Shown piece after piece: positions 9,877-64,000 of a stretch of 64,000 nucleotides of DNA. Below the pieces are notes generated by a model. The model made no database searches. It saw only the letters and a list, made by a program, of their open reading frames with translations, and was not told the DNA's origin. The translations under genes were made by a program, and so were the position numbers. The stretch comes from Basidiobolus meristosporus CBS 931.73 (Eukaryota > Basidiobolomycota > Basidiobolomycetes > Basidiobolales > Basidiobolaceae): assembly GCA_002104905.1 (NCBI GenBank), contig MCFE01000166.1:82378-146377 (forward strand), written 5' to 3'. The first letter of the stretch is position 1. Every line of letters starts with the position of its first letter.

Positions 9877-11310
9877 CCATTATGCTCAGGTAGATGAGAA
9901 TGTAGCAAATGCAGTACCCTCAGTTGAAGACCAGCAAGTAGCCCTCAAAGCATTACCACCACCTATATTAGCTAGTATGTTATCAGCTCATCCCAAGGCA
10001 TTAATGAAGCAATTATGTGCAGTGGCTCATAGAATAGATGCAATGGCTCAGAGAAATCAGGAAATATTCCAGAAAGAGGATGAGCAGATAATATGTGTAG
10101 AGCAATCAATATGCCAGGTAGAGAAAGCAGTATCTTTGCTGCAAAGAAGAAACTCAAGTAGCTCTAAGTCACAGCTAAAAATTGAGCCACTTCCTGATGT
10201 AACAGCAGAGGAACACCATACAGTCTTTGAAGCCCAATAACAGTGCCCAAAGATAAAGCCTACAGAAAAACCTATCACAGCATGGGAGGGAGACAATGTG
10301 GTGTTTATACCAAAGCCTAAAAATCAAAATACATTGAGTATCTGTGGAGCCATTGAGTGCAATAATGAAGAGTGGGCTAATATTCAAGAGGCTGTCAGAT
10401 GTCCAGCAGGCCATCACCCTAAGGCTGGAATTCCATGGGACCATTGGGAACTCCAGCAAGGTAGATGAGCTTGATGAAAAAGGCAATTTGTCTACCACAT
10501 CCTCCACAGCCTCCACAGCCTCCACAATCTCCATTGCTGACAGAGTGGAGATCCCACTGACAGACAAGGCTACAAGGTCAAGAGCTTGAAAGACTATTAT
10601 GATGCCTTCAGTGAATTTTGGAACATTAGTAGGCACACCAAGAGGTTGCAGCACTTCTTCAAGAGCAGTGTTCTAGAAAACACACCTGAATATTGCAAGG
10701 ATTACTGCAAAGACTGGCAGATGAGGTGCTAGACCTGGCAGTGCCAGCTGAACACTAGGACATGTTGGAACCAGTGAATGAACAGTGGCATAAAGTCATT
10801 GGCCTCCCATTAGAGTTGTTGAACCAGAGTGTTATAGCAGAGATACTTGCTGAGTTGTAGATTTTAATGGAGTTACTTGCTGAGTGTGGGGTTGAGCTTA
10901 ATGTCAGTGTAGGGTATAGAGACTTGTATAGGTCAATACAATTGACAATGGAGTTACAAATGAGGTTTCAGCAGAAATAAATAAATTTGTACGCATGAAA
11001 AGTAAGAGAAACTGTTGAGTAAGGGAGTAGGGAGTGTGAAAAGAGCCAATAGCCAATCAATGCACACAAATGTAGGAGGTGATAGAGTGTCTGGGATCAG
11101 AAGGCAAGCAAACTGGCAGGGAACCAATCAAGAGCCACTTAAACACTGTTGTGATTAAAAATTTTGACTAAGTTTTTGTGAAATATGAGGTGCAATTATC
11201 TTTCAACAGTCTCTGGATGGTGTCCTGATGGGATCAGTACCTCTTAGTCACAGGACTTTAACTTTGTAATGGCCTTCCGGTGGGATCATCACAATAATTT
11301 TTCATAGTGG
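9877..11310 (+). repeat. Repeat family Z, copy 2, right part, with broken ORFs
   Basis: The longest open stretch (about 9851-10240) gives an N-terminal segment with a predicted coiled coil (AQRNQEIFQKEDEQI) and a Ser/Lys patch. A TAA at about 10238 interrupts it, after which ITAWEGDNVVFIPKPKNQ continues in the same frame. Further right (about 10590-10860) is a domain with SVLENTPEYCKD and RLADEVLDLAVPAEH, repeated at 60806-60991. The tail around 11160-11310 (GATGG..CCTT..GGGATCATCAC) recurs inverted at 60265-60330. I do not recognise the protein; it may be a gag-like or accessory product of an undescribed element. Confidence 0.5.
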
Positions 11311-11640: not shown

Positions 11641-12525
11641 TTACTCTTCATAATGCTCCAGACACATTTCTCTCAGTGGATGTCTTCTTGTATGAACATA
11701 CTGTGCATTAATAAGTATCTTAACTATTTTACCTATTCTGCTGTTTTCTCCTAAATATGATTTTCCTCTGTATTTACCTGTCAATATGCTGAATCTCTTC
11801 AGATATCCAAATGTGTGCTCTACCCTTACTCTGAAATGATTAAATATCTCATTGTAGAGCTTCTGCTTCCTGCTAAGCACACCATTCCTTGGCTTCCTAT
11901 AAACTGTAATACATCCTAATCTCTGACAATCCTCTCCTATACAGGCTACGTCTGCCATACATTTCTCCCCTCTACTAAATTCAGGATGATTCTCTACCCA
12001 GAGTGCTTTGTCATGCCTACTTCCAGCAAATGGCCCACTAAACCAGATGATGTTACCCTCAATGTCAGACAGTGCTTGAAACTTCACACAGTGTGCCTTG
12101 TACTTGCCAGAATAAAAGTGCCTCTGCCCTCTAGAAGGTCTGTTAATCCTCACTGGGAAGGTATCCAAAATACTCCTGATATGGAACCTGTTGCTGAACA
12201 CTCTGGGATATGGAAGTCTATTGGAGCTTCTGAACCTAGTATTCCAAGCATGCTCTAAGTCATTCATACCCTCCGCAAGGTGGTTCTCCATTGCTGTCAG
12301 CTGGGAATGAAAGCTTCTAGGACTTTTGTTGCCATTGATGGTGGGATGAAACCTTGTAGGGCAGTAGTTCTTGTAATAGCAGGGAAGCTTAACAAGGGAT
12401 CTCCTTGAGTAGATTGGGGTTGATGGTCCACAGTACTTGGAACAGATCTCCTCTAGTTTGTCAAAAGGAAATCCAGTGGTAGTGATGGGATTGATGAGAA
12501 AAGACCATTCAGATGAGTAAGTCAT
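11641..12525 (-). CDS. DDE transposase (PIF/Harbinger-like, DDE_4 type), 294 aa
   Basis: This protein would cut and join the ends of the element in the nucleus. The DDE-type core is visible: a first Asp in SILDTFPVRINRP (about residue 135), a second in GSRHDKALW (about residue 180) and the Glu in FRVRVEHTFGYLKRF near the C-terminus (about residues 250-265), the usual spacing and context for DDE_4 transposases. The N-terminal ~110 residues are rich in basic and aromatic residues but show no clear helix-turn-helix. The start MTYSSEW is shared with copy 2. The partner gene at 12885 is divergent. The two copies differ by roughly a dozen residues. At 294 aa it is short for the family, so an extra upstream exon cannot be excluded. 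Confidence 0.8.
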   Translation of the reverse strand: MTYSSEWSFLINPITTTGFPFDKLEEICSKYCGPSTPIYSRRSLVKLPCYYKNYCPTRFHPTINGNKSPRSFHSQLTAMENHLAEGMNDLEHAWNTRFRSSNRLPYPRVFSNRFHIRSILDTFPVRINRPSRGQRHFYSGKYKAHCVKFQALSDIEGNIIWFSGPFAGSRHDKALWVENHPEFSRGEKCMADVACIGEDCQRLGCITVYRKPRNGVLSRKQKLYNEIFNHFRVRVEHTFGYLKRFSILTGKYRGKSYLGENSRIGKIVKILINAQYVHTRRHPLREMCLEHYEE

Positions 12526-12884
12526 ATTAAAATTGATGGATGATTGTATGGAGGCGGTTTGAATTGATTCGGTGCAATCTGCGTTATTTATCTGATTTTT
12601 AATACATTATGGTTAAATCTCCATCAATTGCCATGTATCCCATCATTATGTCGCAAAAATCATCCGCAAACAATGCCTTGGTACTTTTACTGATGCTTAA
12701 CTCATAGGTCTATAATCAAATAGGAAATCTGCGATTGATGTGATCTGATCCATGTCAACATGATCCAAGATGCATCATGCATAATCTATGGAAAATTCAA
12801 CAATCACATTAGTTTTCATATATATTTCATATAAGACCAGGTTGATGCCAATATACTGCTGTATAAGTATCCAAATCCATTGCT
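12526..12884. promoter_or_regulatory. Shared divergent promoter region of the Harbinger element
   Basis: The 359 bp between the two divergent ORFs are conserved in both full copies (21464-21822 in copy 2). They contain TA-rich segments, including a TTTTCATATATATTTCATAT stretch near 12813, and the palindrome-like GATGCATCATGCATAAT near 12769. No start site can be placed without transcripts. Confidence 0.35.
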
Positions 12885-14117
12885 ATGGTTCCCATACCAA
12901 GCCTCAACTCATCTCTAGTACAACCCAGACAAAACCCATCCCCCAGCTCACAAACGTGGTCCGGACCGGAAAAGTCGATGTCAAGTCTGTTTGAGTTCTT
13001 GCCAAATGATTTTAGTATGGCCCAAGTGTCTATGATGAGCCTTCATACAGATATTTGGGCACTACTGATTAATCTAGCAGAACTAGATACCTCAGAGAGT
13101 CAACAAAGATGGAAGAATTTGAGTAGAAAGCTGTGGCATGAGTTCTACATCAAGATGCCAGCCAATGTATGTAAAAAGATATATAACAAGACAAGTATTG
13201 AAATCAAGAATGAGCTGAGAGTGAGGGGATTTGACAAAGAATCCGCGCGGGAACAATTTCATGTGCAATTTGCACAGTACGGGCCAGACATGTTTGTTTG
13301 TGCCTCAACTTTGGGAACCAAAGAGATTTTGAATGAGTTTTTGCCTCAAATGACTAATGTATTATGTGATATATTAGTAGAGCTAAGTGGCTTCCAAGAG
13401 CAATATACACAGGACTCATTCAGGCAACAGCTCCAAAGTATCAGACAGAGGGTAAGTGAATACCTTGAGGAATCAGATGGTGAGCTTCAGGAGGAAGAAT
13501 ACAGACCGCAAGCAACATCGTCCAGATCGCACCAGCATGCCTTGCTGGATTCCCTACCATCTCTTGCAACCACAGTGCGCCGGCTCATGTCAGTCCAGAC
13601 CACGCCAACACCCTTTACCAGAACGCCCCGCATCAAGTCAACGCGCACGCTTCAAAGCCAAACTACAAGTACTTGCCAAACTGCTCATTTAGACACAAGT
13701 CCATTGGAGTGGACCAAGTCACGTCAACATGCAGCATCACATCAAACTCAGCCAAGGGCCATCTCAATGCGTCAAGGCACGCCTGCGTATGTTGTTTTGC
13801 CTGACCATCAGCAAGTTACTTCTGGTGAACTGACTGATGATGACCAACATGAAGTGCCTCAACCACTGGAGCCCTTGGCAAGTAAAAGAACACGTCAGCG
13901 TGTGGCACTACAGGCCGGTTCAGTTGGTTTAGTTGGAGCAATCCAGCATGGCCAAGCTGCAGCATTGCACTCATCAACCAGGAGGCAAAATACTGACTAC
14001 AAATACACAAGTAGCCAAGATGATAGTCAGCCAGGAAGTAGTATAGGTGTGCAAAGTGAGTCACTACCAAATGCTTCAGTAGTAATCCCTGTGAGAAAAC
14101 AACCCAGGAGAAGATGA
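12885..14117 (+). CDS. Harbinger-element second protein, 410 aa, unrecognised
   Basis: This gene is divergent from the transposase and conserved in both full copies (410 and 420 aa). PIF/Harbinger elements usually pair the transposase with a Myb/SANT DNA-binding protein that aids nuclear import and end recognition; by position this is the counterpart, but I see no convincing Myb repeats. Residues about 55-190 look globular and helical (WALLINLAELD, WKNLSRKLWHEFYIKMP, QQLQSIRQRVSEYLEE). The following ~200 residues are Thr/Ser/Gln-rich and probably disordered, and the end is basic (VRKQPRRR), a likely nuclear signal. Copy 2 has ten extra residues from a short internal repeat near 22575. The start may be an internal Met instead of the first one. 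Confidence 0.65.
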   Translation: MVPIPSLNSSLVQPRQNPSPSSQTWSGPEKSMSSLFEFLPNDFSMAQVSMMSLHTDIWALLINLAELDTSESQQRWKNLSRKLWHEFYIKMPANVCKKIYNKTSIEIKNELRVRGFDKESAREQFHVQFAQYGPDMFVCASTLGTKEILNEFLPQMTNVLCDILVELSGFQEQYTQDSFRQQLQSIRQRVSEYLEESDGELQEEEYRPQATSSRSHQHALLDSLPSLATTVRRLMSVQTTPTPFTRTPRIKSTRTLQSQTTSTCQTAHLDTSPLEWTKSRQHAASHQTQPRAISMRQGTPAYVVLPDHQQVTSGELTDDDQHEVPQPLEPLASKRTRQRVALQAGSVGLVGAIQHGQAAALHSSTRRQNTDYKYTSSQDDSQPGSSIGVQSESLPNASVVIPVRKQPRRR

Positions 14118-20578: not shown

Positions 20579-21463
20579 TTACTCTTCATAATGCTCCAGA
20601 CACATTTCTCTCAGTGGATGTCTTCTTGTATGAACATACTGTGCATTAATAAGTATCTTAACTATTTTACCTATTCTGCTGTTTTCACCTATATATGACT
20701 TTCCTCTGTATTTACCTGCCAATATGCTGAATCTCTTCAGATATCCAAATGTGTGCTCTACCCTTACTCTGAAATGATTAAATATCTCATTGTAGAGCTT
20801 CTGCTTCCTGCTAAGCACACCATTCCTTGGCTTCCTATAAGCTGTAATACATCCTAATCTCTGACAATCCTCTCCTATATAGGCTAAGTATGCCATACAT
20901 TTCTCCCCTCTACTGAATTCAGGATGATTCTCTACCCAGAGTGCTTTGTCATGCCTACTTCCAGTAAATGGCCCACTAAACCAGATGATGTTACCCTCAA
21001 TGTCAGACAGTGCTTGAAACTTCACACAGTGTGCGTTGTACTTGCCAGAATAAAAGTGCCTCTGCCCTCTAGAAGGTCTGTTAATCCTCACTGGGAAGGT
21101 ATCCAAAATACTCCTGATATGGAACCTGTTGCTGAACACTCTGGGATATGGAAGTCTATTGGAGCTTCTGAACCTAGTATTCCAAGCTTGCTCTAAGTCA
21201 TTCATACCCTCTGCAAGGTGGTTCTCCATTGCTGTCAGCTGGGAATGAAAGCTTCTAGGACTTTTGTTGCCATGGATGGTGGGATGAAACCTTGTAGGGC
21301 AATAGTTCTTGTAATAGCAGAGAAGCTTAACAAGGGATCTCCTTGAGTAGATTGGGGTTGATGGACCACAGTACTTGGAATAGATCTCCTCCAGTGTGTC
21401 AAAAGGAAATCCAGTGGTAGTGATGGGATTGATGAGAAAAGACCATTCAGATGAGTAAGTCAT
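20579..21463 (-). CDS. DDE transposase (PIF/Harbinger-like), copy 2, 294 aa
   Basis: Near-identical twin of 11641-12525, with the same catalytic landmarks: ILDTFPVRINRP, GSRHDKALW and FRVRVEHTFGYLKRF. The ATG chosen gives MTYSSEWSFLINP as in copy 1. The frame is open a further 14 codons upstream, but without an ATG. Differences from copy 1 include T for A in GPFTGS and A for V in CITAYR. The frame is intact, so this copy could be functional. Confidence 0.8.
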   Translation of the reverse strand: MTYSSEWSFLINPITTTGFPFDTLEEIYSKYCGPSTPIYSRRSLVKLLCYYKNYCPTRFHPTIHGNKSPRSFHSQLTAMENHLAEGMNDLEQAWNTRFRSSNRLPYPRVFSNRFHIRSILDTFPVRINRPSRGQRHFYSGKYNAHCVKFQALSDIEGNIIWFSGPFTGSRHDKALWVENHPEFSRGEKCMAYLAYIGEDCQRLGCITAYRKPRNGVLSRKQKLYNEIFNHFRVRVEHTFGYLKRFSILAGKYRGKSYIGENSRIGKIVKILINAQYVHTRRHPLREMCLEHYEE

Positions 21464-21822
21464 ATTAAAATTGATGGATGATTGTATGGAGGCGGTTTGA
21501 ATCAATTCGGCGCGATCGGTCTTATTTATCTGATTTTTAACACATTATGGTTAAATCTCCATCAATTGCCATGTATCCCATCATTATGTCGCAAAAATCA
21601 TCCGCAAACAATGCCTTGGTACTTTTATTGATGCTTTAATCATAAGTCTATAATCAAATAGGAAATCTGCGATTGATGTGATCTGATCCGTGTCAACGCA
21701 ATCCGAGATGCATCATGCATAATATATGGAAAATTCAACAATCACATTAGTTTTCATATATATTTCATATAAGACCAGGTTGATGCCAATATACTGCTGT
21801 ATAAGTATCCAAATCCGTTGCT

Positions 21823-23085
21823 ATGGTCCCCATACCAAGCCTCAACTCATCTTTAGTACAACCCAGACAAAATCCATCCCCCAGCTCACAAGCGCGGTCC
21901 GGACCGGAAAAGTCGATGTCGGATCCGTTCAAGTTCTTGCCAAATGATTTTAGTATGGCCCAAGTGTCTATGATGAGCCTTCATACAGATATTTGGGCAC
22001 TACTGATTAATCTAGCAGAACTAGATACCTCAGAGAGTCAACAAAGATGGAAGAATTTGAGTAGAAAGCTGTGGCATGAGTTCTACATCAGGATGCCAGC
22101 CAATGTATGTAAAAAGATATATAACAAGACAAGTATTGAAATCAAGAATGAGCTGAGAGTGAGGGGATTTGATGAAGAAGCCGCGCGGGAACAATTTCGC
22201 GCGCAATTTGCACAGTACGGGCTGGACGCGTCCATTTGTGCCTCAACTTTGGGAACCAAAGAGATTTTGAATGAGTTTTTGCCTCAAATGACTGATGTAC
22301 TACGTGATATATTAGTAGAGCTAAGTGGCGTCCAAGAGCAATATACACAGGACTCATCCAGGCAACAGCTCCAAAGTATCAGACAGAGGGTAAGTGAATA
22401 CCTTGAGGAATCAGATGGTGAGCTTCAGGAGGAAGAATACAGACCGCAAGCAACATCGTCCAGATCGCGCCAGCACGCCTCGCTGGATTCCCTACCATCT
22501 CTTGCAACCACAGCGCGCCGGCGCACGTCAGTCCAGACCACGCCAACACCCTTTACCAGAACGCCCCGCGTTGAGTCAACGCGCATTGAGTCAACGCCCG
22601 TCGGGTCAACGCGCGCGCTTCAGAGCAAAACTACGAGAACTTGCCAAACTGCTCATTTAGACACAAGTCCATTGGAGCGGACCGAGTCGCGTCAACATGC
22701 GGCATCACATCGAACTCAGCCAAGGGCCATCTCAACGCGTCAAGGCGCGCCTGCGCGTGCCGTTTTGCCTGACCATCAGCAAGTTACTTCTGGTGAACTG
22801 ACTGATGATGACCAACATGAAGTGCCTCAACCACCGGAGCCCTTGGCAAGTAAAAGAACGCATCAGCACATGGCACTACAGGCCGGTTCAGTTGGTTCAG
22901 TTGGAGCAATTCAGCGCGGCCAAGCTGCAGCATCGCACTCATCAACTAGGAGGCAAAATACAGACTACAAATACACAAGTAGCCAAGATGATAGTCAGCC
23001 AGGAAGTAGTATAGGTGTGCAAAGTGAGTCACTACCAAATGCTTCAGTAGTAATCCCTGTGAGAAAAAAACCCAGGAGAAGATGA
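21823..23085 (+). CDS. Harbinger-element second protein, copy 2, 420 aa, unrecognised
   Basis: Counterpart of 12885-14117, divergent from the transposase and open throughout. It has the same helical N-terminal half, Thr/Ser/Gln-rich middle and basic end (VRKKPRRR). It is ten residues longer because of a short tandem motif of the form (V/I/V)(E/G)ST(R/P) near residues 250-265, encoded by CG-rich sequence around 22565-22620. Keeping two long ORFs in both copies, with changes largely at CG sites, argues that both proteins were needed for transposition until recently. Confidence 0.65.
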   Translation: MVPIPSLNSSLVQPRQNPSPSSQARSGPEKSMSDPFKFLPNDFSMAQVSMMSLHTDIWALLINLAELDTSESQQRWKNLSRKLWHEFYIRMPANVCKKIYNKTSIEIKNELRVRGFDEEAAREQFRAQFAQYGLDASICASTLGTKEILNEFLPQMTDVLRDILVELSGVQEQYTQDSSRQQLQSIRQRVSEYLEESDGELQEEEYRPQATSSRSRQHASLDSLPSLATTARRRTSVQTTPTPFTRTPRVESTRIESTPVGSTRALQSKTTRTCQTAHLDTSPLERTESRQHAASHRTQPRAISTRQGAPARAVLPDHQQVTSGELTDDDQHEVPQPPEPLASKRTHQHMALQAGSVGSVGAIQRGQAAASHSSTRRQNTDYKYTSSQDDSQPGSSIGVQSESLPNASVVIPVRKKPRRR

Positions 23086-57978: not shown

Positions 57979-58464
57979 ATGCCTTCCCACAGACAAAACC
58001 CTGATTTTGACCGTAATTACAAAAACGATTTGACTGACCGAAGCCAGCAAAGCTACCCACGTTCTCGCTTTGGGCGCCAGCACCGACAAGATGAGTATGA
58101 AACAGGTGCTACTCACAGAAATGATCAATTCAAACATCCTCGCTCTCGTTATGGTCACCACCATGAGCATGATGAATATGGCAACGAATATGAAAGAGGT
58201 ATTTTTCACAGAAATGACCAACAGAACTATCTTCGTTCTTGTTATGATCGTCAATATGAGCAAAATGGGTATGACAACGAGTATGAGAGAAGTATTCCCG
58301 GAAGAGACAGCCAGCATAAATACCCCCGCTCTTGTTGCGGTCGTCAATACAAGTAAGATGAATACAAGAGAGCCGTTTCTCGCAGAAATAGCCAACAGAA
58401 CTACCCTCCTTCTGGTTTTGGTAGCCAATACAATCAAGATGATCATATCACTGAATATGAGTGA
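57979..58464 (+). pseudogene. Tandem-repeat protein ORF (31-residue units), interrupted by one stop
   Basis: From ATG at 57979 the frame encodes about five units of roughly 31 residues. Units 2 and 3 are clearest: RNDQFKHPRSRYGHHHEHDE and RNDQQNYLRSCYDRQYEQNG, each followed by Y(G/D)NEYERG/S and about three more residues. A TAA at 58354-58356 falls where neighbouring units have a Gln or Glu, and the frame then continues through DEYKRAVSRRNSQQNY to a TGA at 58462-58464. Composition is rich in Arg, Gln, Tyr, Asn and His, with no signal peptide. I do not recognise the family. It may be a decayed low-complexity host gene, or the end of a transposon. Confidence 0.45.
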
Positions 58465-58479
58465 GTTTTCTTGCAGAAA

Positions 58480-59586
58480 TGGCCAACAGTTCTAATGTCC
58501 CCAAAACTCTTAAAACATATCTTGCCCAAGGTTTTAGCAAGATATCAGGTACCCAGTACATGTCACATTTTCAAAGTAAGCCAAAAGCCTCCTGACTTTT
58601 CATTTGGGCTCTCATGACATTTCCCAGCTTACTCTATGTACACATACCACACAGGCCATGTAAAAGTATTAATACAATCTTTACATTCAATAAATGTCCA
58701 ATTCAAAGCTATAAAATATACTTGCTCTCATAGTAACCTCTAGAATTGCCAAAGCACTGGCAACTCTAAGGACAGTCAAAAATAGTGATACACTGATTGC
58801 AGCACTTGAACTCATACTCAAACTGTTGAAATTTTGTACTTAAACCAAAATATCCACATAACAAGCCACCTAAATCATAGTCTTCAGATTCTAGACAATT
58901 CTGTCCAAATTCCTTGTCAGGATTTAGTCAGAGTACTATCACCCAAACATCAGGAATCCAGAACATGAAGCTTCTCAAACTTGCCCAAACAGACCCAAAC
59001 TTAACACACAAATTTTTGGAGCCTTTGTAGTTATACTGTACATATATATATTACTAAGATCATGAGAAAATAAATATTGCTATGTAAGAACTATTGATAA
59101 AATTTGTCCTTCTACCTAAATATTGACTCAACTTGTTTACTTAAATCATGATCCAGAAGTTTTTGAGAACTCTGACTAAATTTCTTATTTGGATGTACTT
59201 GGAATATTTTCACCAAAATATCAGGTATCCATAACATGAAATCTGAGTAAGGTGTTAAAACTGCTACAAGAGTTTTGGCAATATGTGAAAGTGATATGGT
59301 GATGGAGAACAAGTAGATTATGTGGTTTTCGCTTGTTGATTTATTGATTGGAAAGGTAGTAGTTACACTTGTGCATGGTCTTGGCCTAGCAAACACATAG
59401 TATAGATTAAGAAAGATTCAAAGAGCATGTGCATCAAGTTTGGGGCTGTTTGGGCAACCTATCTAATTTTCATGTTCTGGGTACCTAGTATTTGTTGTAA
59501 AAATTTGTAATTCCACCCTGATATTCACCTAACTTAGTCACTTAGATCATTACCTTCAAGTCCTAGAGAATACTGACCAAACTCTG
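58480..59586. repeat. Patchwork of copia LTR fragments
   Basis: At least four pieces of the LTR defined at 25762-26111 are recognisable: about 58480-58770 (divergent), 58826-59030 beginning TGTTGAAATTTTG, 59087-59260, an inverted piece about 59262-59470, and 59492-59586 beginning TGTTGTAAAAATTTG. The last is broken off after CTGACCAAACTC, exactly where a TTAGGG-tailed LINE begins. Confidence 0.65.
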
Positions 59587-60253
59587 AGGGTTAGGGGGAG
59601 ACAGTTGCCAACAGGTGAAATCTTTATTTCAGTAGAAACAAAGAAGCCAGCACTACTGTTGTAGCTTTGATACAACAGTGTGTAGCTGAGGGGAATTTGT
59701 AGGTAAGTTAATAAGAAGTGATGATAGTTCTTCAGTGCTCAAGACACTGTTCAGTGGGAAGGGGGGTAGCAAGAGAGGTAAGAATGACTTGTGAACAACA
59801 TTAATGAGGGGAATGTGATAAGGATTGATATTCATCATAAAGGGAGTGTGCTGCTTCAGATATTGCTGCCAAAGGTCTGTCAAGTACTTCAGGTAGGCCA
59901 GCTTAGGTTTTTCTGACTGCAGAATATATTGAGCAAACTTCTTGACTTCAGGATCTCCAAGCATAGTTCTCCAGTGGGAGCCAGGTGTAGTGTGGTGTGT
60001 TCTCTTCCAGGCCTTGATCAGTGGGTTGTTGCAGTGGTGAAGTCTGAGATATAATCTGGTTCTAAGGTAGAGAAGTCTGATCTTATAGAGCATAAACCCA
60101 AAAGCACCAAGAATAGCATGTCTGTAGGGGCATTCAGGCAGATGAGGCACCAAGGAGGTAATACACCAAACTGCAAACTTGTCAAGCTTAGTGCAGTCTT
60201 TAGAAGTAAGAGAGTGAAGTGGTAAGCCAAATTCCAGGACAGGGAAGACAAAC
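59587..60253 (-). mobile_element. Telomere-type LINE, copy 1 (3' fragment)
   Basis: A 5'-truncated copy of the LINE at 62151-63436. On the minus strand it encodes the RT-downstream C-terminal region (LPECPYRHAILGAFGF, EKPKLAYLKYLTDLWQQYL, LPPFPLNSVLSTEELSSLL) to a TGA-type end near 59653, then the shared 3' tail: TGAAATAAAGATTTCACC, a hairpin, and a C-run ending CCCTAACCC at 59587. It joins a broken copia LTR on the left and, without TTAGGG, an inverted repeat Z on the right. Confidence 0.8.
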
Positions 60254-61092
60254 CCTATGCAAAATTATTGTAATGATCCCGTCAAAAGGCCATCACAAAG
60301 TTAAAGTCTTATGACTAAGAGGTACTGATCCTGTCAGGACACTGCACAGAGACTGTTGAAAAGTAATTGCACCCCAGATCTCACAAAAAACTAGGTCAAA
60401 ATTTTTCATCACGATGATGCATAAGTGGCTTTTGATTGGTTCCCTGCCAATTTGCACTCTTTCTGATCCCAGACACTCTATCACCTCCTACATTTGTGTG
60501 TATTGATTGGCTATTGCCTCTTTTTCACACTCCTTACTTCCTGACTCAACCATTTCTCTTACTTTTCATGCGTACAAATTGATTAATTTCCTTTGAAACT
60601 TCAGTTGTACCTCAATTGCCAATTGTGTTGACCTATACAAGTCCCTATACCCTACACTAACATTAAGCCCAACCCAACACTCAACAAGTAACTCCACTAA
60701 AATCTACAACTCAATATGTATCTCTGCTGTAACACTCTGGTTCCACAACTTTGGTGGGAGCCCAATGACTCTATGCCACTGTTCATTCACTGGTTCCAAG
60801 ATGTCCTAGTGTTCAGCTGGCACTGCCAGGTCTAGCACCTCATCTGCCAGTCTTTGCAATAAATCCTTGCAATATTCAGGTGTGTTTTCTAGAACACTGC
60901 CCTTGAAGAGGTGCTGCAACCTCTTGGTGTGCCTATCAATGTTCCAAAATTCACTGAAGGCATCATGATAGTCTTTCAAGCTCTTGACCATGTAGCCTTG
61001 TCTGTCAGTGGGATCTCCACTCTGTCAACAATGGAGAATGTGGAGGCTGTGGTAGACATATTGCCTTTTTCAGCAAACTCATCTACCTTGCT
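60254..61092 (-). repeat. Repeat family Z, copy 5, inverted and broken
   Basis: Reverse complement of about 10455-11310. Encodes on the minus strand FSEFWNIDRHTKRLQHLF, SVLENTPEYCKDLLQRLADE and VLDLAVPAEH, the best-preserved version of this domain (60806-60991). At its right edge the repeat stops in mid-sequence (CTCATCTACCTTGCT) and is joined directly to GGGTTAGGGG at 61093, the start of a SINE. Confidence 0.55.
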
Positions 61093-61181
61093 GGGTTAGG
61101 GGGGAGGAAAGTCACCAAGTGGTGAAATCTTTATTTACTTATGACAAGTATCTAAAGAAGCCAAGTTAATCTGAAGTAATT

Positions 61182-61300
61182 CCTAGAAAGCTAGGTCTGA
61201 GAGATATCTTCCTGGTAAGCCAGGTCTGAGAGTTGAGAAGCTGAGTGGTACTATATTTCCTAGTTAGCTAGGTCTGAGAGAGGTTTCCTGGAAAGCCAGG
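61182..61300 (-). repeat. Quartet of covarying hairpins in SINE A
   Basis: Four 14-nt perfect stem-loops, each followed on the + strand by TCTGAGA or CCTGAGA: 61182-61195 (CCTAG-AAAG-CTAGG), 61211-61224 (CCTGG-TAAG-CCAGG), 61259-61272 (CCTAG-TTAG-CTAGG) and 61287-61300 (CCTGG-GAAA-type loop-CCAGG). The fourth stem position switches between A-T and G-C pairs with pairing kept. The same set occurs in SINE B from 61710 and in SINE C from 63843. Confidence 0.7.
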
Positions 61301-61558
61301 CCTGAGAAGTGAGAATCTGAATATATCTGAGCTAAGTTATCATGGTTTGCAGTAGCTGAATTGTGGCCGGAATGGCCAGTAGACTGGGGGAACTGAGATG
61401 AATTTCTGGGCAATCACTGGCCAAATTTACTAGGCAAATCTGGCCAATTTGCATTTCAAGGATTTCAGCCAATCAGAGCCTTTACTTTGCCCGATGGTTG
61501 ATCAAGCCATCTCCCAATGAGCACACATCAATTTATTAATCAAATTTTGCTGGATCCA

Positions 61559-61612
61559 GGATTTGAACCCACAACCATGGGTATGGAAGGGTTAGGGATA
61601 ACCACAAGGCTA
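61559..61612 (-). promoter_or_regulatory. Internal RNA polymerase III promoter (A and B boxes) of SINE A
   Basis: B box GGTTCAAATCC at 61569-61559, one base off the GGTTCGAATCC consensus. A box TAGCCTTGTGGTTA at 61612-61599. Measured from the element's 5' end, the boxes fall at positions 10 and 53, essentially the places they hold in a tRNA. Confidence 0.7.
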
Positions 61613-61621
61613 AGTGTTCTT

Positions 61622-62149
61622 GGTTAGGGGGGAGGAAAGTCACCAAGTGGTGAAATCTTTATTTACTTATGACAAGTATCTAAAGAAGCCATGTTAATCT
61701 GAAGTAATTCCTAGAAAGCTAGGTCTGAGAGATATCTTCCTGGTAAGCCAGGTCTGAGAGTTGAGAAGCTGAGTGGTACTATATTTCCTAGTTAGCTAGG
61801 TCTGAGAGAGGTTTCCTGGAAAGCCAGGCCTGAGAAGTGAGAATCTGAATATATCTGAGCTAAGTTATACTGGTTTGCGGTAGCTGAATTGTGGCCAGAA
61901 TAGCCAGTAGACTGGGGGAGCTGAGATGAATATCTGGGCGATCACTGGCCAAATTTACTAGGCAAATCTGGCCAATTAGCATTTCAAGGATTTCAGCCAA
62001 TCAGAGCCTTTACTTTGCCCAATGGTTGATCAAGCCATCTCCCAATGAGCACACATCAATTTATTAATCAAATTTTGTTGGATCCAGGATTTGAACCCAC
62101 AACCATGGGTATGGAAGGGTTAGGGATAACCACAAGGCTAAGTGTTCTT
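61622..62149 (-). mobile_element. Telomere-tailed tRNA-derived SINE, copy B (full length)
   Basis: Nearly identical to copy A, with the same 5' end (62149), hairpin quartet (from 61710) and 3' tail, which joins GGTTAGGGG at 61622 against the 5' end of copy A. The B box lies at 62097-62087 and the A box at about 62140-62127. Two full-length copies head to tail separated only by a TTAGG-type unit. Confidence 0.75.
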
Positions 62150-62150
62150 G

Positions 62151-63436
62151 GTTAGGGGGGGAGACAGTCACCAACAGGTGAAATCTTTATTTCAGTTGAA
62201 ACAAAGAAGCCAGCGCTACTGTTGTAGCTTTGATACAAGAGTGTGTAGCTGAGGGGAATTTGTAGGTAAGTTAATAAGAAGTGATGATAGCTCTTCAGTG
62301 CTCAAGACACTGTTCAGTGGGAAGGGGGGTAGCAAGAGAGGTAAGAATGACTTGTGAACAACATTAATGAGGGGAATGTGATAAGGATTGATATTCATCA
62401 TAAATGGAGTGTGCTGCTGCAGATATTGCTGCCAAAGGTCTGTCAAGTACTTCAGGTAGGCCAGCTTGGGTTTTTCTGACTGCAGAATAAAGTGAGCAAA
62501 CTTCTTGACTTCAGGATCTCCAATTATAGTTCTCCAGCAGGAGCCAGGTGTTGTGTGGTGTGTTCTCTTCCAGGCCTTAATCAGTGGGTTGTTGTAGTTG
62601 TGAAGTCTGAGGTATAATCTGGTTCTAAGGTAGAGAAGTCTGATCTTATAGGGCATAAACCCAAAAGCACCAAGAATAGCATGTCTGTAGGGGCATTCAG
62701 GCAAATGAGGCACCAAGGAGGTAATGCACCATACTGCAAACTTGTCAAGCTTAGTGCAGTCTCTAGAAGTAAGAGAGAGAAGTGGTAAGCCAAATTCCAG
62801 GACAGGGAAGACAAACTGCTTGAGTAGAAGGAGGCAGCTGGGAGCTGAAGTTGTAGGAGGAGTAACAGCCAACAGCTTGTGGAGTGCCTGTCTTGCAAGG
62901 ATAATTCTCTTCTTCAGGTGTGCTCCAGAGTCTAGTCCAGTAGGAAGGAAAGGAAAGCCAAGATATGTAGCAGAAACCTGAGCAGGTAGAGTGGAGTTCT
63001 CCAAGTTGATGGGAGAGCCCAAAGGTACTGTCTTTGCAATGGAAAGCTGCAGATTATTCTTCTGCAGATACTGGTGGATGGTCTGGGAGTCTTGTTGCAC
63101 ATTGGAGGAGGATATTCTGATGTCATCAGCAAAGAGAGTAACCAGGCAGTCAGCTGAGAGTCTTGGGAAGTCATTCAGGAAGATGGCAAACAGTATAGGA
63201 CCAAGCACAGAGCCTTGAACCACTCCATTAGGAACTGAGAACACAGCTGATTGCTCACTTGGGTGCAGAATTCTTGCTTGTGGATCCAGAAACAGAGACC
63301 TGACAAGGAGGGTGAGAGAGGTACTGGAGAAGCATTGCAACTTGGACCAAAGCAGATTTCTGTCAACTGAATCAAAGGCCTTAGTAATATCAAACAGAAC
63401 AGAGGGATACTTGCACTGGAGAGAGTGATCTTGGCT
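62151..63436 (-). mobile_element. Telomere-type LINE, copy 2 (5'-truncated, RT readable)
   Basis: The longest LINE copy. On the minus strand it enters inside the RT domain and runs through the C-terminal region to the shared 3' tail (AAATAAAGATTTCACC, hairpin CACCTGTTGGTG, C-run, CCCTAACC at 62151). The 3' tail abuts the intact 5' end of SINE B through TTAGGG, and its own truncated 5' end at 63436 is joined by CTTAGGGG to LINE copy 3. Any endonuclease domain would lie in the missing 5' part. Confidence 0.85.
62216..63436 (-). pseudogene. Non-LTR reverse transcriptase, N-terminally truncated, about 406 aa
   Basis: Open across the whole LINE copy. RT motif A is VLFDITKAFDSVDRNLLWSK (first catalytic Asp), the motif with PNGVVQGSVLGPILFAIFLN follows, and motif C is LFADDIRIS (FADD, 63133-63122), so the catalytic set is complete. 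This style is that of LINEs; telomere-associated Penelope-type RTs look different. After the RT come about 250 residues with LPECPYRHAIL and NPLIKAWKRTHHTTPGS, which I do not recognise as a known domain. The frame extends to 63460 only because it reads through into the tail of the next element. A 5' start is lacking, so not functional by itself. Confidence 0.85.
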
Positions 63437-63740
63437 TAGGGGGGGGGAGACAGTCACCAACAGGTGAAATCTTTATTTCAGTTGAAACAAAGAAGCCAGC
63501 GCTACTGTTGTAGCTTTGATACAAGAGTGTGTAGCTGAGGGGAATTTGTAGGTAAGTTAATAAGAAGTGATGATAGCTCTTCAGTGCTCAAGACACTGTT
63601 CAGTGGGAAGGGGGGTAGCAAGAGAGGTAAGAATGACTTGTGAACAACATTAATGAGGGGAATGTGATAAGGATTGATATTCATCATAAATGGAGTGTGC
63701 TGCTGCAGATATTGCTGCCAAAGGTCTGTCAAGTACTTCA
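63437..63740 (-). mobile_element. Telomere-type LINE, copy 3 (short 3' fragment)
   Basis: Matches the last ~300 bp of copy 2 almost exactly (C-terminus TDLWQQYLQQHTPFMM to the 3' tail). Its 3' tail joins CTTAGGGG at 63436 and its truncated 5' end meets GGGTTAGGGTTAGGG at 63741. Confidence 0.8.
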
Positions 63741-63763
63741 GGGTTAGGGTTAGGGTTAGGGGG
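63741..63763 (+). repeat. Interstitial telomeric repeat tract (TTAGGG)
   Basis: GGGTTAGGGTTAGGGTTAGG followed by extra Gs, about three and a half units, G-rich strand reading toward the right end of the window. It is the longest TTAGGG run in the window and joins LINE copy 3 to SINE C. Other junctions carry one to two units with a variable G run. Confidence 0.85.
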
Positions 63764-64000
63764 GGAGGAAAGTCACCAAGTGGTGAAATCTTTATTTACT
63801 TATGACAAGTATCTAAAGAAGCCAAGTTAATCTGAAGTAATTCCTAGAAAGCTAGGTCTGAGAGATATCTTCCTGGTAAGCCAGGTCTGAGAGTTGAGAA
63901 GCTGAGTGGTACTATATTTCCTAGTTAGCTAGGTCTGAGAGTGGTTTCCTGGAAAGCCAGGCCTGAGAAGTGAGAATCTGAATATATCTGAGCTAAGTTA
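63754..64000 (-). mobile_element. Telomere-tailed SINE, copy C (cut by window end)
   Basis: 3' part of the same SINE as copies A and B, including the CACC/GGTG hairpin and the quartet of stem-loops (first at 63843-63856). The tRNA-like head would lie beyond 64000. Confidence 0.75.

What the first reader, a model, noticed from the sequence alone, without database searches (positions are those of the whole stretch)
59587..64000. Head-to-tail LINE/SINE array joined by TTAGGG: a candidate telomere-building retroelement system
Six units (LINE 1, SINE A, SINE B, LINE 2, LINE 3, SINE C) all lie on the minus strand, and each 3' end is a C-run plus CCCTAA that meets TTAGGG on the + strand. The junctions are at 59587, 61093, 61622, 62151, 63436 and 63741. 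In four of the six, the partner is the 5' end (complete or truncated) of the previous unit. If the G-rich 3' overhang of a chromosome end paired with CCCUAA at the RNA's 3' end and primed cDNA synthesis, exactly this order and polarity would result, with the chromosome end to the right. Known parallels are MoTeR elements of Magnaporthe and the HeT-A/TART logic; a fungal LINE with a SINE partner doing this would be new to my knowledge.
Basis: partly seen in the sequence, partly recalled or inferred. Interest (0 to 1): 0.92.

Follow-up and report, generated by a model that had tools for sequence, protein, structure and literature searches.

The report
Telomere-targeted LINE and SINE arrays
In this early-diverging fungus, several kinds of copy-and-paste genetic elements, long and short, stack up in one direction at chromosome ends, each copy apparently started from the end's own repeat sequence, so they may help to rebuild chromosome ends alongside the normal telomere enzyme.

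Summary
Observation confirmed; interpretation supported, function unproven. Host: Basidiobolus meristosporus CBS 931.73. The six minus-strand units and TTAGGG junctions are real; the window ends at the contig's end. On contigs of 100 kb or more, 78 of 78 sampled copies have the 5' side towards the nearer end; one inverted array was found elsewhere.

The system is richer than reported: LINE-A (ORF1, in-frame UGA-CUA, ORF2 with APE-like endonuclease and RT), LINE-B, two ORF1-only families recalling HeT-A, and a SINE-like element, sharing one two-hairpin 3' end. A telomerase gene is indicated.

Best model: the G-strand 3' end pairs with CCCUAA at the RNA's 3' end and primes cDNA. Internal tracts are 0-5 repeats against about 34 at caps, so short or broken ends seem to be the substrate. 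Architecture resembles MoTeR and SART/TRAS, but it is neither: a new variant of a known kind.

The parts
58001..59590 (.). proximal flank: AT-rich degenerate repeat family, cut and joined to the array at 59591
   Evidence: similar stretches in loci of C872, C353, C590, C824, C370, C1109 and C2, and next to a LINE 3' end in C217
59591..59597 (+). junction 1: one TTAGGG plus extra G
59598..60253 (-). LINE-A unit 1, 3' end intact, 5' truncated (reference position 656)
   Evidence: BLAST 96% to reference copy
60254..61095 (.). fragment of another repeat, cut and joined to the next unit; not part of the LINE/SINE system (LTR-retroelement-like by eye)
   Evidence: 90% identical inverted copy at window 10513-11307
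61096..61103 (+). junction 2: TTAGGGGG
61104..61623 (-). SINE A, full length against the 520-nt reference
   Evidence: 98% to reference
61624..61631 (+). junction 3: TTAGGGGG between two complete SINEs
61632..62151 (-). SINE B, the 520-nt reference copy; box-B-like GGTTCAAATC near its 5' end, no TTTT in the sense strand, no stop-free frame longer than 49 codons
62152..62160 (+). junction 4: TTAGGGGGG
62161..63436 (-). LINE-A unit 2, 5' truncated (reference position 1276); holds the C-terminal part of ORF2 with part of the RT
   Evidence: protein P0001 (window 62216-63472 minus), RVT_1 E=1.2e-17
63437..63446 (+). junction 5: TTAGGG (shares its first T with the truncated LINE) plus a long G-run
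63447..63742 (-). LINE-A unit 3, 5' truncated (reference position 296)
63743..63764 (+). junction 6: G(TTAGGG)3 plus extra G
63765..64000 (-). SINE C, cut by the end of the contig
   Evidence: contig length 146377 = window end

Best explanation
These are telomere-targeted non-LTR retroelements of Basidiobolus. An element RNA carries a conserved two-hairpin 3' module, a C-run and CCCUAA; the CCCUAA comes with the transcript because parent copies are followed by a telomeric repeat. The LINE-encoded reverse transcriptase binds the module, the 3'-OH of the G-rich strand (...TTAGGG) of a chromosome end pairs with CCCUAA, and cDNA is made from the RNA's 3' end towards its 5' end, often stopping early. 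The new end, complete or truncated, gets a few TTAGGG repeats by telomerase through short overlaps, and either receives the next element or is lengthened to a full cap. LINE-B, the ORF1-only families and the SINE-like element carry the same tail; the ones without RT are presumably clients of a LINE reverse transcriptase. Preferred substrate: short, eroded or broken ends rather than full-length telomeres. Shown by sequence: structure, polarity, place, junctions, shared tail, a telomerase gene signature. Inferred: priming, RT sharing, read-through of the UGA, telomerase healing, preference for short ends, any benefit to the host.
For: 133 of 137 units begin at the element's exact 3' end while 5' ends vary: 89 truncation points, 82 distinct, the value 3271 (5 times) being a break in the reference. 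128 of 128 classified 3' junctions read (T)(T)A+G-run. One orientation per contig: 162 plus and 4 minus matches, the 4 all on C424. 78 of 78 sampled copies on 34 contigs of 100 kb or more have the 5' side to the nearer end. 57 of 84 truncated 5' ends (those joined in phase to a telomeric tract) overlap the repeat by 1.81 nt on average, null 0.74, 0 of 5000 resamples reach it. Two-hairpin module in all five families (z -2.7 to -4.5). APE-like endonuclease and RT in ORF2. Telomerase_RBD matches. A LINE-A joined by one TTAGGG to an interrupted ABC-transporter frame on C1.
Against: No RNA, protein or transposition data. The endonuclease region is conserved in relatives, odd if free ends were the only target. 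Interstitial tracts could have shrunk after insertion: distal-most junctions reach 4 in 3 of 14, inner ones at most 3. Longer interstitial tracts exist outside the annotated set: two SINE 3' junctions with 5 repeats (C595, C337), and one 5-repeat tract on C35 with no element beside it in the 131 bases read. Identical truncation points at two places (LINE-A 2764 on C1 and C555; 296 on C387 and C408; SINE 134 twice on C365) suggest that some units were copied by recombination. Overlap at 5' junctions is also expected from ordinary target-primed insertion, and the test kept only in-phase joins and let short gaps choose their phase. Not every telomeric contig has the exact tail motif: among C1-C90, 7 of 8 with a listed terminal tract have it, C81 does not. 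One array is inverted. Pairing in the 3' module rests on one compensatory pair; 2 of 15 pairs are broken in one sequence.
Confidence: 0.65

Rival explanations
1. Endonuclease-driven target-primed insertion into telomeric repeats, as proposed for SART/TRAS and MoTeR: the APE-like endonuclease nicks the TTAGGG strand within the first few repeats, cDNA synthesis starts there, and the distal telomere is kept beyond the new element.
For: ORF2 has an APE-like domain with GDLN and SDH, conserved in relatives; its predicted fold matches APE1 and, at rank 38, the TRAS1 endonuclease. Polarity and flanking repeats fit equally well, and a few junctions have 4-5 repeats.
Against: Insertion at random within about 34 repeats would leave long proximal tracts; none of the 108 short gaps has more than 4. 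18 of 128 junctions lack a whole TTAGGG right at the G-run, and 11 of these have none in the 45 bases before it. Some junctions sit on non-telomeric DNA with one repeat, such as the ABC-transporter frame on C1.
Confidence: 0.24
2. Recombination (break-induced replication, unequal exchange) between chromosome ends built the arrays; retrotransposition happened long ago.
For: An inverted array near a telomere, other repeats inside arrays and three truncation points found at two places each show that copying or rearrangement occurs; MoTeR arrays change this way (PMC7367193, passages).
Against: Most truncation points and unit orders differ among the 39 contigs. Among the 67 best-scoring of 1517 LINE candidates, 31 keep the same 922-residue frame and 65 have no stop inside, so recent source elements exist; these 67 are a best-scoring subset.
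Confidence: 0.08
3. Template jumping: the reverse transcriptase runs from the 5' end of one RNA to the 3' CCCUAA of the next, so that a head-to-tail run is made in one event and the TTAGGG linkers are copied from RNA.
For: Linkers are short, most often one repeat; some joins carry only G's.
Against: Full-length SINE ends are followed by extra bases and TTAGGG in varying phase, which a fixed RNA 3' end does not predict. May act in addition to the main model.
Confidence: 0.03

Closest known systems
MoTeR1/MoTeR2 of Magnaporthe oryzae
   Same: Fungal telomeric non-LTR elements; head-to-tail arrays, 5' end towards the chromosome end, separated by (TTAGGG)n; a non-autonomous partner sharing the ends (PMC7367193, passages)
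   Different: MoTeR1 has a putative restriction-like endonuclease; the CCHC/REL motifs searched were not found here and an APE-like domain is present instead. MoTeR2 is a defective derivative; here there are ORF1-only elements and a SINE-like element. MoTeR tracts range from half a repeat to more than 20; here 0-5 were seen.
FoTeRs of Fusarium oxysporum
   Same: Telomere-only fungal LINEs; 3' tracts of about 3-8 repeats (PMC12857005, abstract and sections 16 and 19)
   Different: REL endonuclease at the C-terminus; no SINE or ORF1-only partners mentioned in the parts read.
SART1 and TRAS1 of Bombyx mori
   Same: Two-ORF LINEs with APE-like endonuclease targeting telomeric repeats in a host with a TERT gene (PMC7265360, abstract and introduction; review PMC4700185 section 14)
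   Different: SART1 ends in poly(A), and only full-length copies are reported at telomeres; here the tail is a C-run before CCCTAA with no A-run, and truncation is the rule for LINE-A.
HeT-A, TART and TAHRE of Drosophila
   Same: Terminal arrays assumed to be primed from the chromosome 3'-OH, with an element coding only ORF1 that depends on RT-coding partners (PMC4700185 section 14)
   Different: Drosophila lacks telomerase and simple telomeric repeats; here a telomerase gene signature and TTAGGG caps are present. No homology was tested or claimed.
Tail-sharing LINE/SINE pairs such as UnaL2 of eel (recalled)
   Same: A SINE mobilised through a 3' stem-loop shared with a LINE
   Different: Recalled as not telomere-specific; here the shared module has two hairpins and precedes a telomere-complementary end.

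Membership tests
Telomere-targeted non-LTR retrotransposon (functional class) | Copies at chromosome ends, joined to telomeric repeats at the 3' end | tested here: met
   78 of 78 sampled copies on contigs of 100 kb or more; 128 of 128 classified 3' junctions; one inverted array as exception
Telomere-targeted non-LTR retrotransposon (functional class) | Encodes RT, with endonuclease or use of chromosome ends | tested here: met
   RVT_1 E=2.6e-25; PF14529 E=5e-4, below its cut-off; APE-like fold in a low-confidence model
MoTeR/FoTeR (CRE-like, REL endonuclease) | CCHC plus REL endonuclease after the RT | tested here: not met
   No match to the CCHC-type pattern nor to RHD/RHN, KPD/RPD or RAD in ORF2 of L062
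SART/TRAS (R1 clade) | APE-like endonuclease N-terminal to the RT | tested here: met
SART/TRAS (R1 clade) | Poly(A) 3' tail | tested here: not met
   The 56 distinct 3' modules listed end in a C-run and TA/TAA or similar, none in an A-run
SART/TRAS (R1 clade) | RT phylogeny within the R1 clade | not tested
   No labelled clade references at hand
HeT-A/TART/TAHRE | Replaces telomerase; no simple telomeric repeats | tested here: not met
   Telomerase_RBD matches and TTAGGG caps
HeT-A/TART/TAHRE | ORF1-only element next to RT-coding partners (works-like feature) | tested here: met
   F3 and F4 code only an ORF1-like protein, 36% and 27% identical over the aligned part to LINE-A ORF1
SINE | Short, non-coding, 3' end shared with a LINE | tested here: met
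   520 nt, longest stop-free frame 49 codons; shared module
SINE | Pol III promoter, RNA-gene ancestry | tested here: inconclusive
   Box B GGTTCAAATC at 55 and no TTTT (63 of 2000 dinucleotide shuffles also lack it), but the box-A pattern scanned had no match near the 5' end; a looser TAGCCTTGTGG is read by eye; no tRNA match in ARAGORN or Rfam; fold z -0.2

The most novel reading that the evidence does not exclude
A four-tier consortium (full LINEs, ORF1-only elements, SINE-like elements, telomerase) rebuilds chromosome ends: the elements act on ends that have fallen to a few repeats or have broken, adding from about 30 bp to about 4.4 kb at a time by telomere-primed reverse transcription, while telomerase supplies the cap. 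It would be a working intermediate between telomerase-only and Drosophila-type telomeres, with a SINE-like element dedicated to chromosome ends.
Probability: 0.38. Interest if true: 0.92.

Novelty: new variant of a known kind. Interest (0 to 1): 0.78.

Why it matters
Telomere-targeted retroelements are known from few lineages. This case adds an early-diverging fungal phylum, an APE-like LINE where the fungal examples read here (MoTeR, FoTeR) have REL enzymes, SINE-like and ORF1-only followers with the same tail, and a telomerase gene with ordinary caps in the same genome. The junctions (0-5 repeats seen, against caps of about 34) make a long-standing question directly testable: do such elements attach to short or broken ends, and so act as a back-up for telomerase? 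The conserved 3' module gives a small, assayable RNA signal. I found no report of it in the held open-access library (searches; listings only, except the papers named in this report). The one paper holding Basidiobolus, telomere and retrotransposon together (PMC11258239) was seen as a listing and not read; PMC7466969 on Basidiobolus genomes has no word beginning 'telomer' or 'retrotranspos' in its main text (find). Most subscription papers are not in that library.

Tried and rejected
Chance: rejected (control counts 0 for the tail motif). Internal dispersed repeats with other targets: rejected for the sampled contigs. Rfam families in the window at gathering scores: none. tRNA ancestry of the SINE-like element: not confirmed. 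REL endonuclease: not found. Whole-ORF2 structure: low overall confidence (mean pLDDT 51); only its match to APE folds is used. Clade of the LINE: not assigned. Close homologues outside Basidiobolus with named hosts: none among the 120 of 822 listed or the 12; P0004 and P0122-P0125 come from unnamed records. Paper search for stop read-through in LINEs: 3 listings, not read.

Rows dropped: one search used 48 of 85 rows, 85 of the 100 listed rows and 29 of 67 rows (rows on contigs whose length I had not fetched, and very short matches, were left out). One search scored 40 of 432 candidates and 67 of 1517, so copy counts from them are lower bounds. In one search, 2 of 130 tails were unclassified. 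One search used 57 of 84 truncated ends. treat 11 long gaps apart. The LINE-A reference used for BLAST lacks about 311 bp that other copies have, and its 5' end is not the true one.
Full report
What it is in. The best named hits of the LINE protein are K493DRAFT proteins of Basidiobolus meristosporus CBS 931.73, 63-97% identical over the aligned part. The assembly held has 89,006,234 bases in 1311 contigs; the window is C387:82378-146377, ending at the contig's last base. NCBI places Basidiobolus in its own phylum, Basidiobolomycota.

The observation. The six units and six junctions are there, with the stated polarity. Four junctions follow the 5' end of the preceding unit. The other two follow a degenerate repeat (59591) and an 850-bp fragment of another repeat (61096), most of which recurs inverted at 10513-11307.

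Genome-wide. The 16-base tail motif occurs 1555 times forward and 150 reverse (control 0); (TTAGGG)4 occurs 7428 forward and 81 reverse, so most contigs seem to be written with the telomere to the right. LINE-A's 26-base 3' end occurs 642 times. On 34 contigs of 100 kb or more whose length I had fetched (6.05 Mb), 78 of 78 copies have their 5' side towards the nearer end, median 3.7 kb and at most 24.7 kb away. In contigs of about 20 kb or less the nearest-end count says little: the 'wrong' cases are on C27, C32, C45, C343, C217 and C323, besides C726. C361 (156 kb) lies inside LINE-A at both ends, in mirrored orientation; C291 (161 kb) has LINE-A 3' ends at 2.1 kb (minus) and 156.6 kb (plus), its left end matching no reference. 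Exception: on C726 LINE-A and SINE units lie inverted about 10 kb from a telomeric right end, beside copia-like sequence (label by eye).

Array anatomy. I merged overlapping loci into 222,385 bases on 39 contigs with 130 tails and annotated them with single reference copies. 133 of 137 units not cut on that side begin at the element's 3' end. Of 119 unit-to-unit gaps 108 are 40 bp or less, median 10 bp, and 11 are longer, holding other sequence or the missing LINE-A 5' part. 15 last units lead to 18-41 TTAGGG, median 34 (on C1 after a short other stretch). Of SINE units with a readable 5' end, 46 of 63 are complete; of LINE-A units, 3 of 45 reach the reference's 5' end. In those three the sequence continues with the same TTAGGGTTAGGG and a common leader, so the true 5' UTR is longer.

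Junction sequences. 128 classified 3' junctions end in TTA (110), TA (11) or A (7) plus a G-run of varying length; of the 18 without a whole TTAGGG at the G-run, 11 have none in the 45 bases before it. The 108 short gaps hold 0 (31), 1 (50), 2 (17), 3 (5) or 4 (5) whole TTAGGG; BLAST ends can take a base or two of the repeat, so the zeros are partly an alignment effect. The 14 distal-most junctions have 0-4. Looking on purpose for longer tracts, I found two SINE 3' junctions with exactly 5 repeats (C595, C337) and a 5-repeat tract on C35 without an element beside it in the 131 bases read. At 57 of 84 truncated 5' ends, those joined in phase, the overlap between element and repeat averages 1.81 nt against 0.74 expected, 0 of 5000 resamples. 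On C1 a LINE-A is joined by one TTAGGG to an ABC-transporter frame open to the junction (ABC_tran E=6.6e-10), as if it had capped a broken chromosome; that the gene was broken is inferred.

The elements. LINE-A is 4.1 kb in the reference copy and about 311 bp longer in others. ORF1 has a Cys-rich start and a coiled-coil-like stretch (by eye; Pfam matches below cut-off). ORF2 is a 922-residue frame: among the 67 best-scoring copies 31 show exactly that frame and 65 have no stop inside. ORF1 ends in UGA and ORF2 follows in the same frame with CUA next; 13 of 13 matches (12 places) have TGACTA, and ORF2's first methionine is residue 142 in L062. UGA-CUA is recalled as a favourable read-through context, so ORF2 may be made as a fusion; not tested. 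ORF2 has RVT_1 (E=2.6e-25) and a weak PF14529 match. The model, of low overall confidence, matches APE1 structures and, at rank 38, TRAS1 endonuclease. YLPP, GDLN, DWI and SDH are present, and the usual catalytic Glu reads as Asp in this group (motif roles recalled). LINE-B is a second RT-coding family. F3 and F4 are about 1-kb elements coding only an ORF1-like protein: F3 36% and F4 27% identical to LINE-A ORF1 over the aligned part, 43% to each other. The SINE-like element is 520 nt.

The shared 3' module. The families end (sense) in TGGCTTCTTT-loop-AAATAAAGATTTCACC-loop-GGTGA-...-C-run-TAA. It folds into two hairpins in each of five representatives (z -2.7 to -4.5). Among 8 sequences and 15 pairs, one pair shows compensatory change, two show one-sided change, two are broken in one sequence, the rest do not vary. 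The module holds AATAAA, a possible poly(A) signal (my reading), but no listed module ends in an A-run.

How it works. Because parent copies are followed by CCCTAA, their transcripts can carry CCCUAA just past the C-run. A TTAGGG 3' end can pair with it and prime cDNA synthesis. This gives the strand, the polarity, the intact 3' ends, the truncated 5' ends and the junction sequence in one step. [quoted passage not shown] The short internal tracts and the joins to non-telomeric DNA lead me to prefer short or broken ends as the substrate over nicking within a full telomere, with moderate confidence. Two neighbouring stretches match Telomerase_RBD above its cut-off (40.5 and 34.7 bits; the second frame holds a TAG; 0 of 14 control genomes), so telomerase is probably encoded; its RT domain was not examined. 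The elements then supplement telomerase rather than replace it.

Known or new. Head-to-tail telomeric arrays with a non-autonomous partner are known in Magnaporthe and telomere-only LINEs in Fusarium; APE-like telomeric LINEs in Bombyx; ORF1-only partners in Drosophila. The combination seen here, and a SINE-like element specialised for telomeres, I did not find in the held library. I file it as a new variant of a known kind.

Limits. 

Noticed in passing
L061, L062, L065, L067, L069, L070, L073 and others, ORF1-ORF2 boundary of LINE-A: ORF1 and ORF2 lie in one frame separated only by TGA followed by CTA in 13 of 13 matches; ORF2 has no methionine before residue 142 in L062: candidate programmed stop read-through.
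   Followed up: partly
G000 contigs C361 (156,200 bp) and C291 (160,813 bp): Contigs of about 160 kb with LINE copies at both ends in mirrored orientation, hinting at very small chromosomes; (TTAGGG)4 counts suggest a few hundred telomeric ends in the assembly (rough inference).
   Followed up: partly
L075:6244-6480 (contig C1): LINE-A joined by a single TTAGGG to an open ABCA-like transporter frame: looks like a broken chromosome end capped by a retroelement.
   Followed up: yes
window 58001-59590; also loci of C872, C353, C590, C824, C370, C1109, C2 and C217, and window 24.8-26.1 kb: A degenerate AT-rich repeat family (copies spaced 401-405 bp) lies at or near the proximal border of several arrays and also further inside this contig.
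   Followed up: partly
window 60254-61095 and 10513-11307; long gaps in C2, C353 and C830: Fragments that look like LTR retroelements lie inside the arrays, including a Ty3-like polyprotein frame next to an F3 unit on C2 (labels by eye).
   Followed up: partly
C726:55400-60549 (L138, L139): An array inverted relative to the nearby telomere, beside copia-like RT sequence (by eye): a subtelomeric rearrangement.
   Followed up: yes
C595:4444-4474, C337:9643-9673, C35:17741-17771 (L155-L157): Interstitial tracts of exactly 5 TTAGGG: two directly before a SINE 3' end, one without an element beside it in the 131 bases read.
   Followed up: yes
window 11641-12606 minus and 20579-21544 minus, with plus-strand frames at 12867-14117 and 21805-23085: Two frames of equal length (321 aa) 8.9 kb apart, each beside a plus-strand frame (416 and 426 aa); the first matches DDE_Tnp_4: probably two copies of one DNA transposon, not compared.
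   Followed up: no
5' part of LINE-A in C1179, C353 and C518: Two telomere-like repeats lie inside the 5' leader of the three longest LINE-A copies seen.
   Followed up: no
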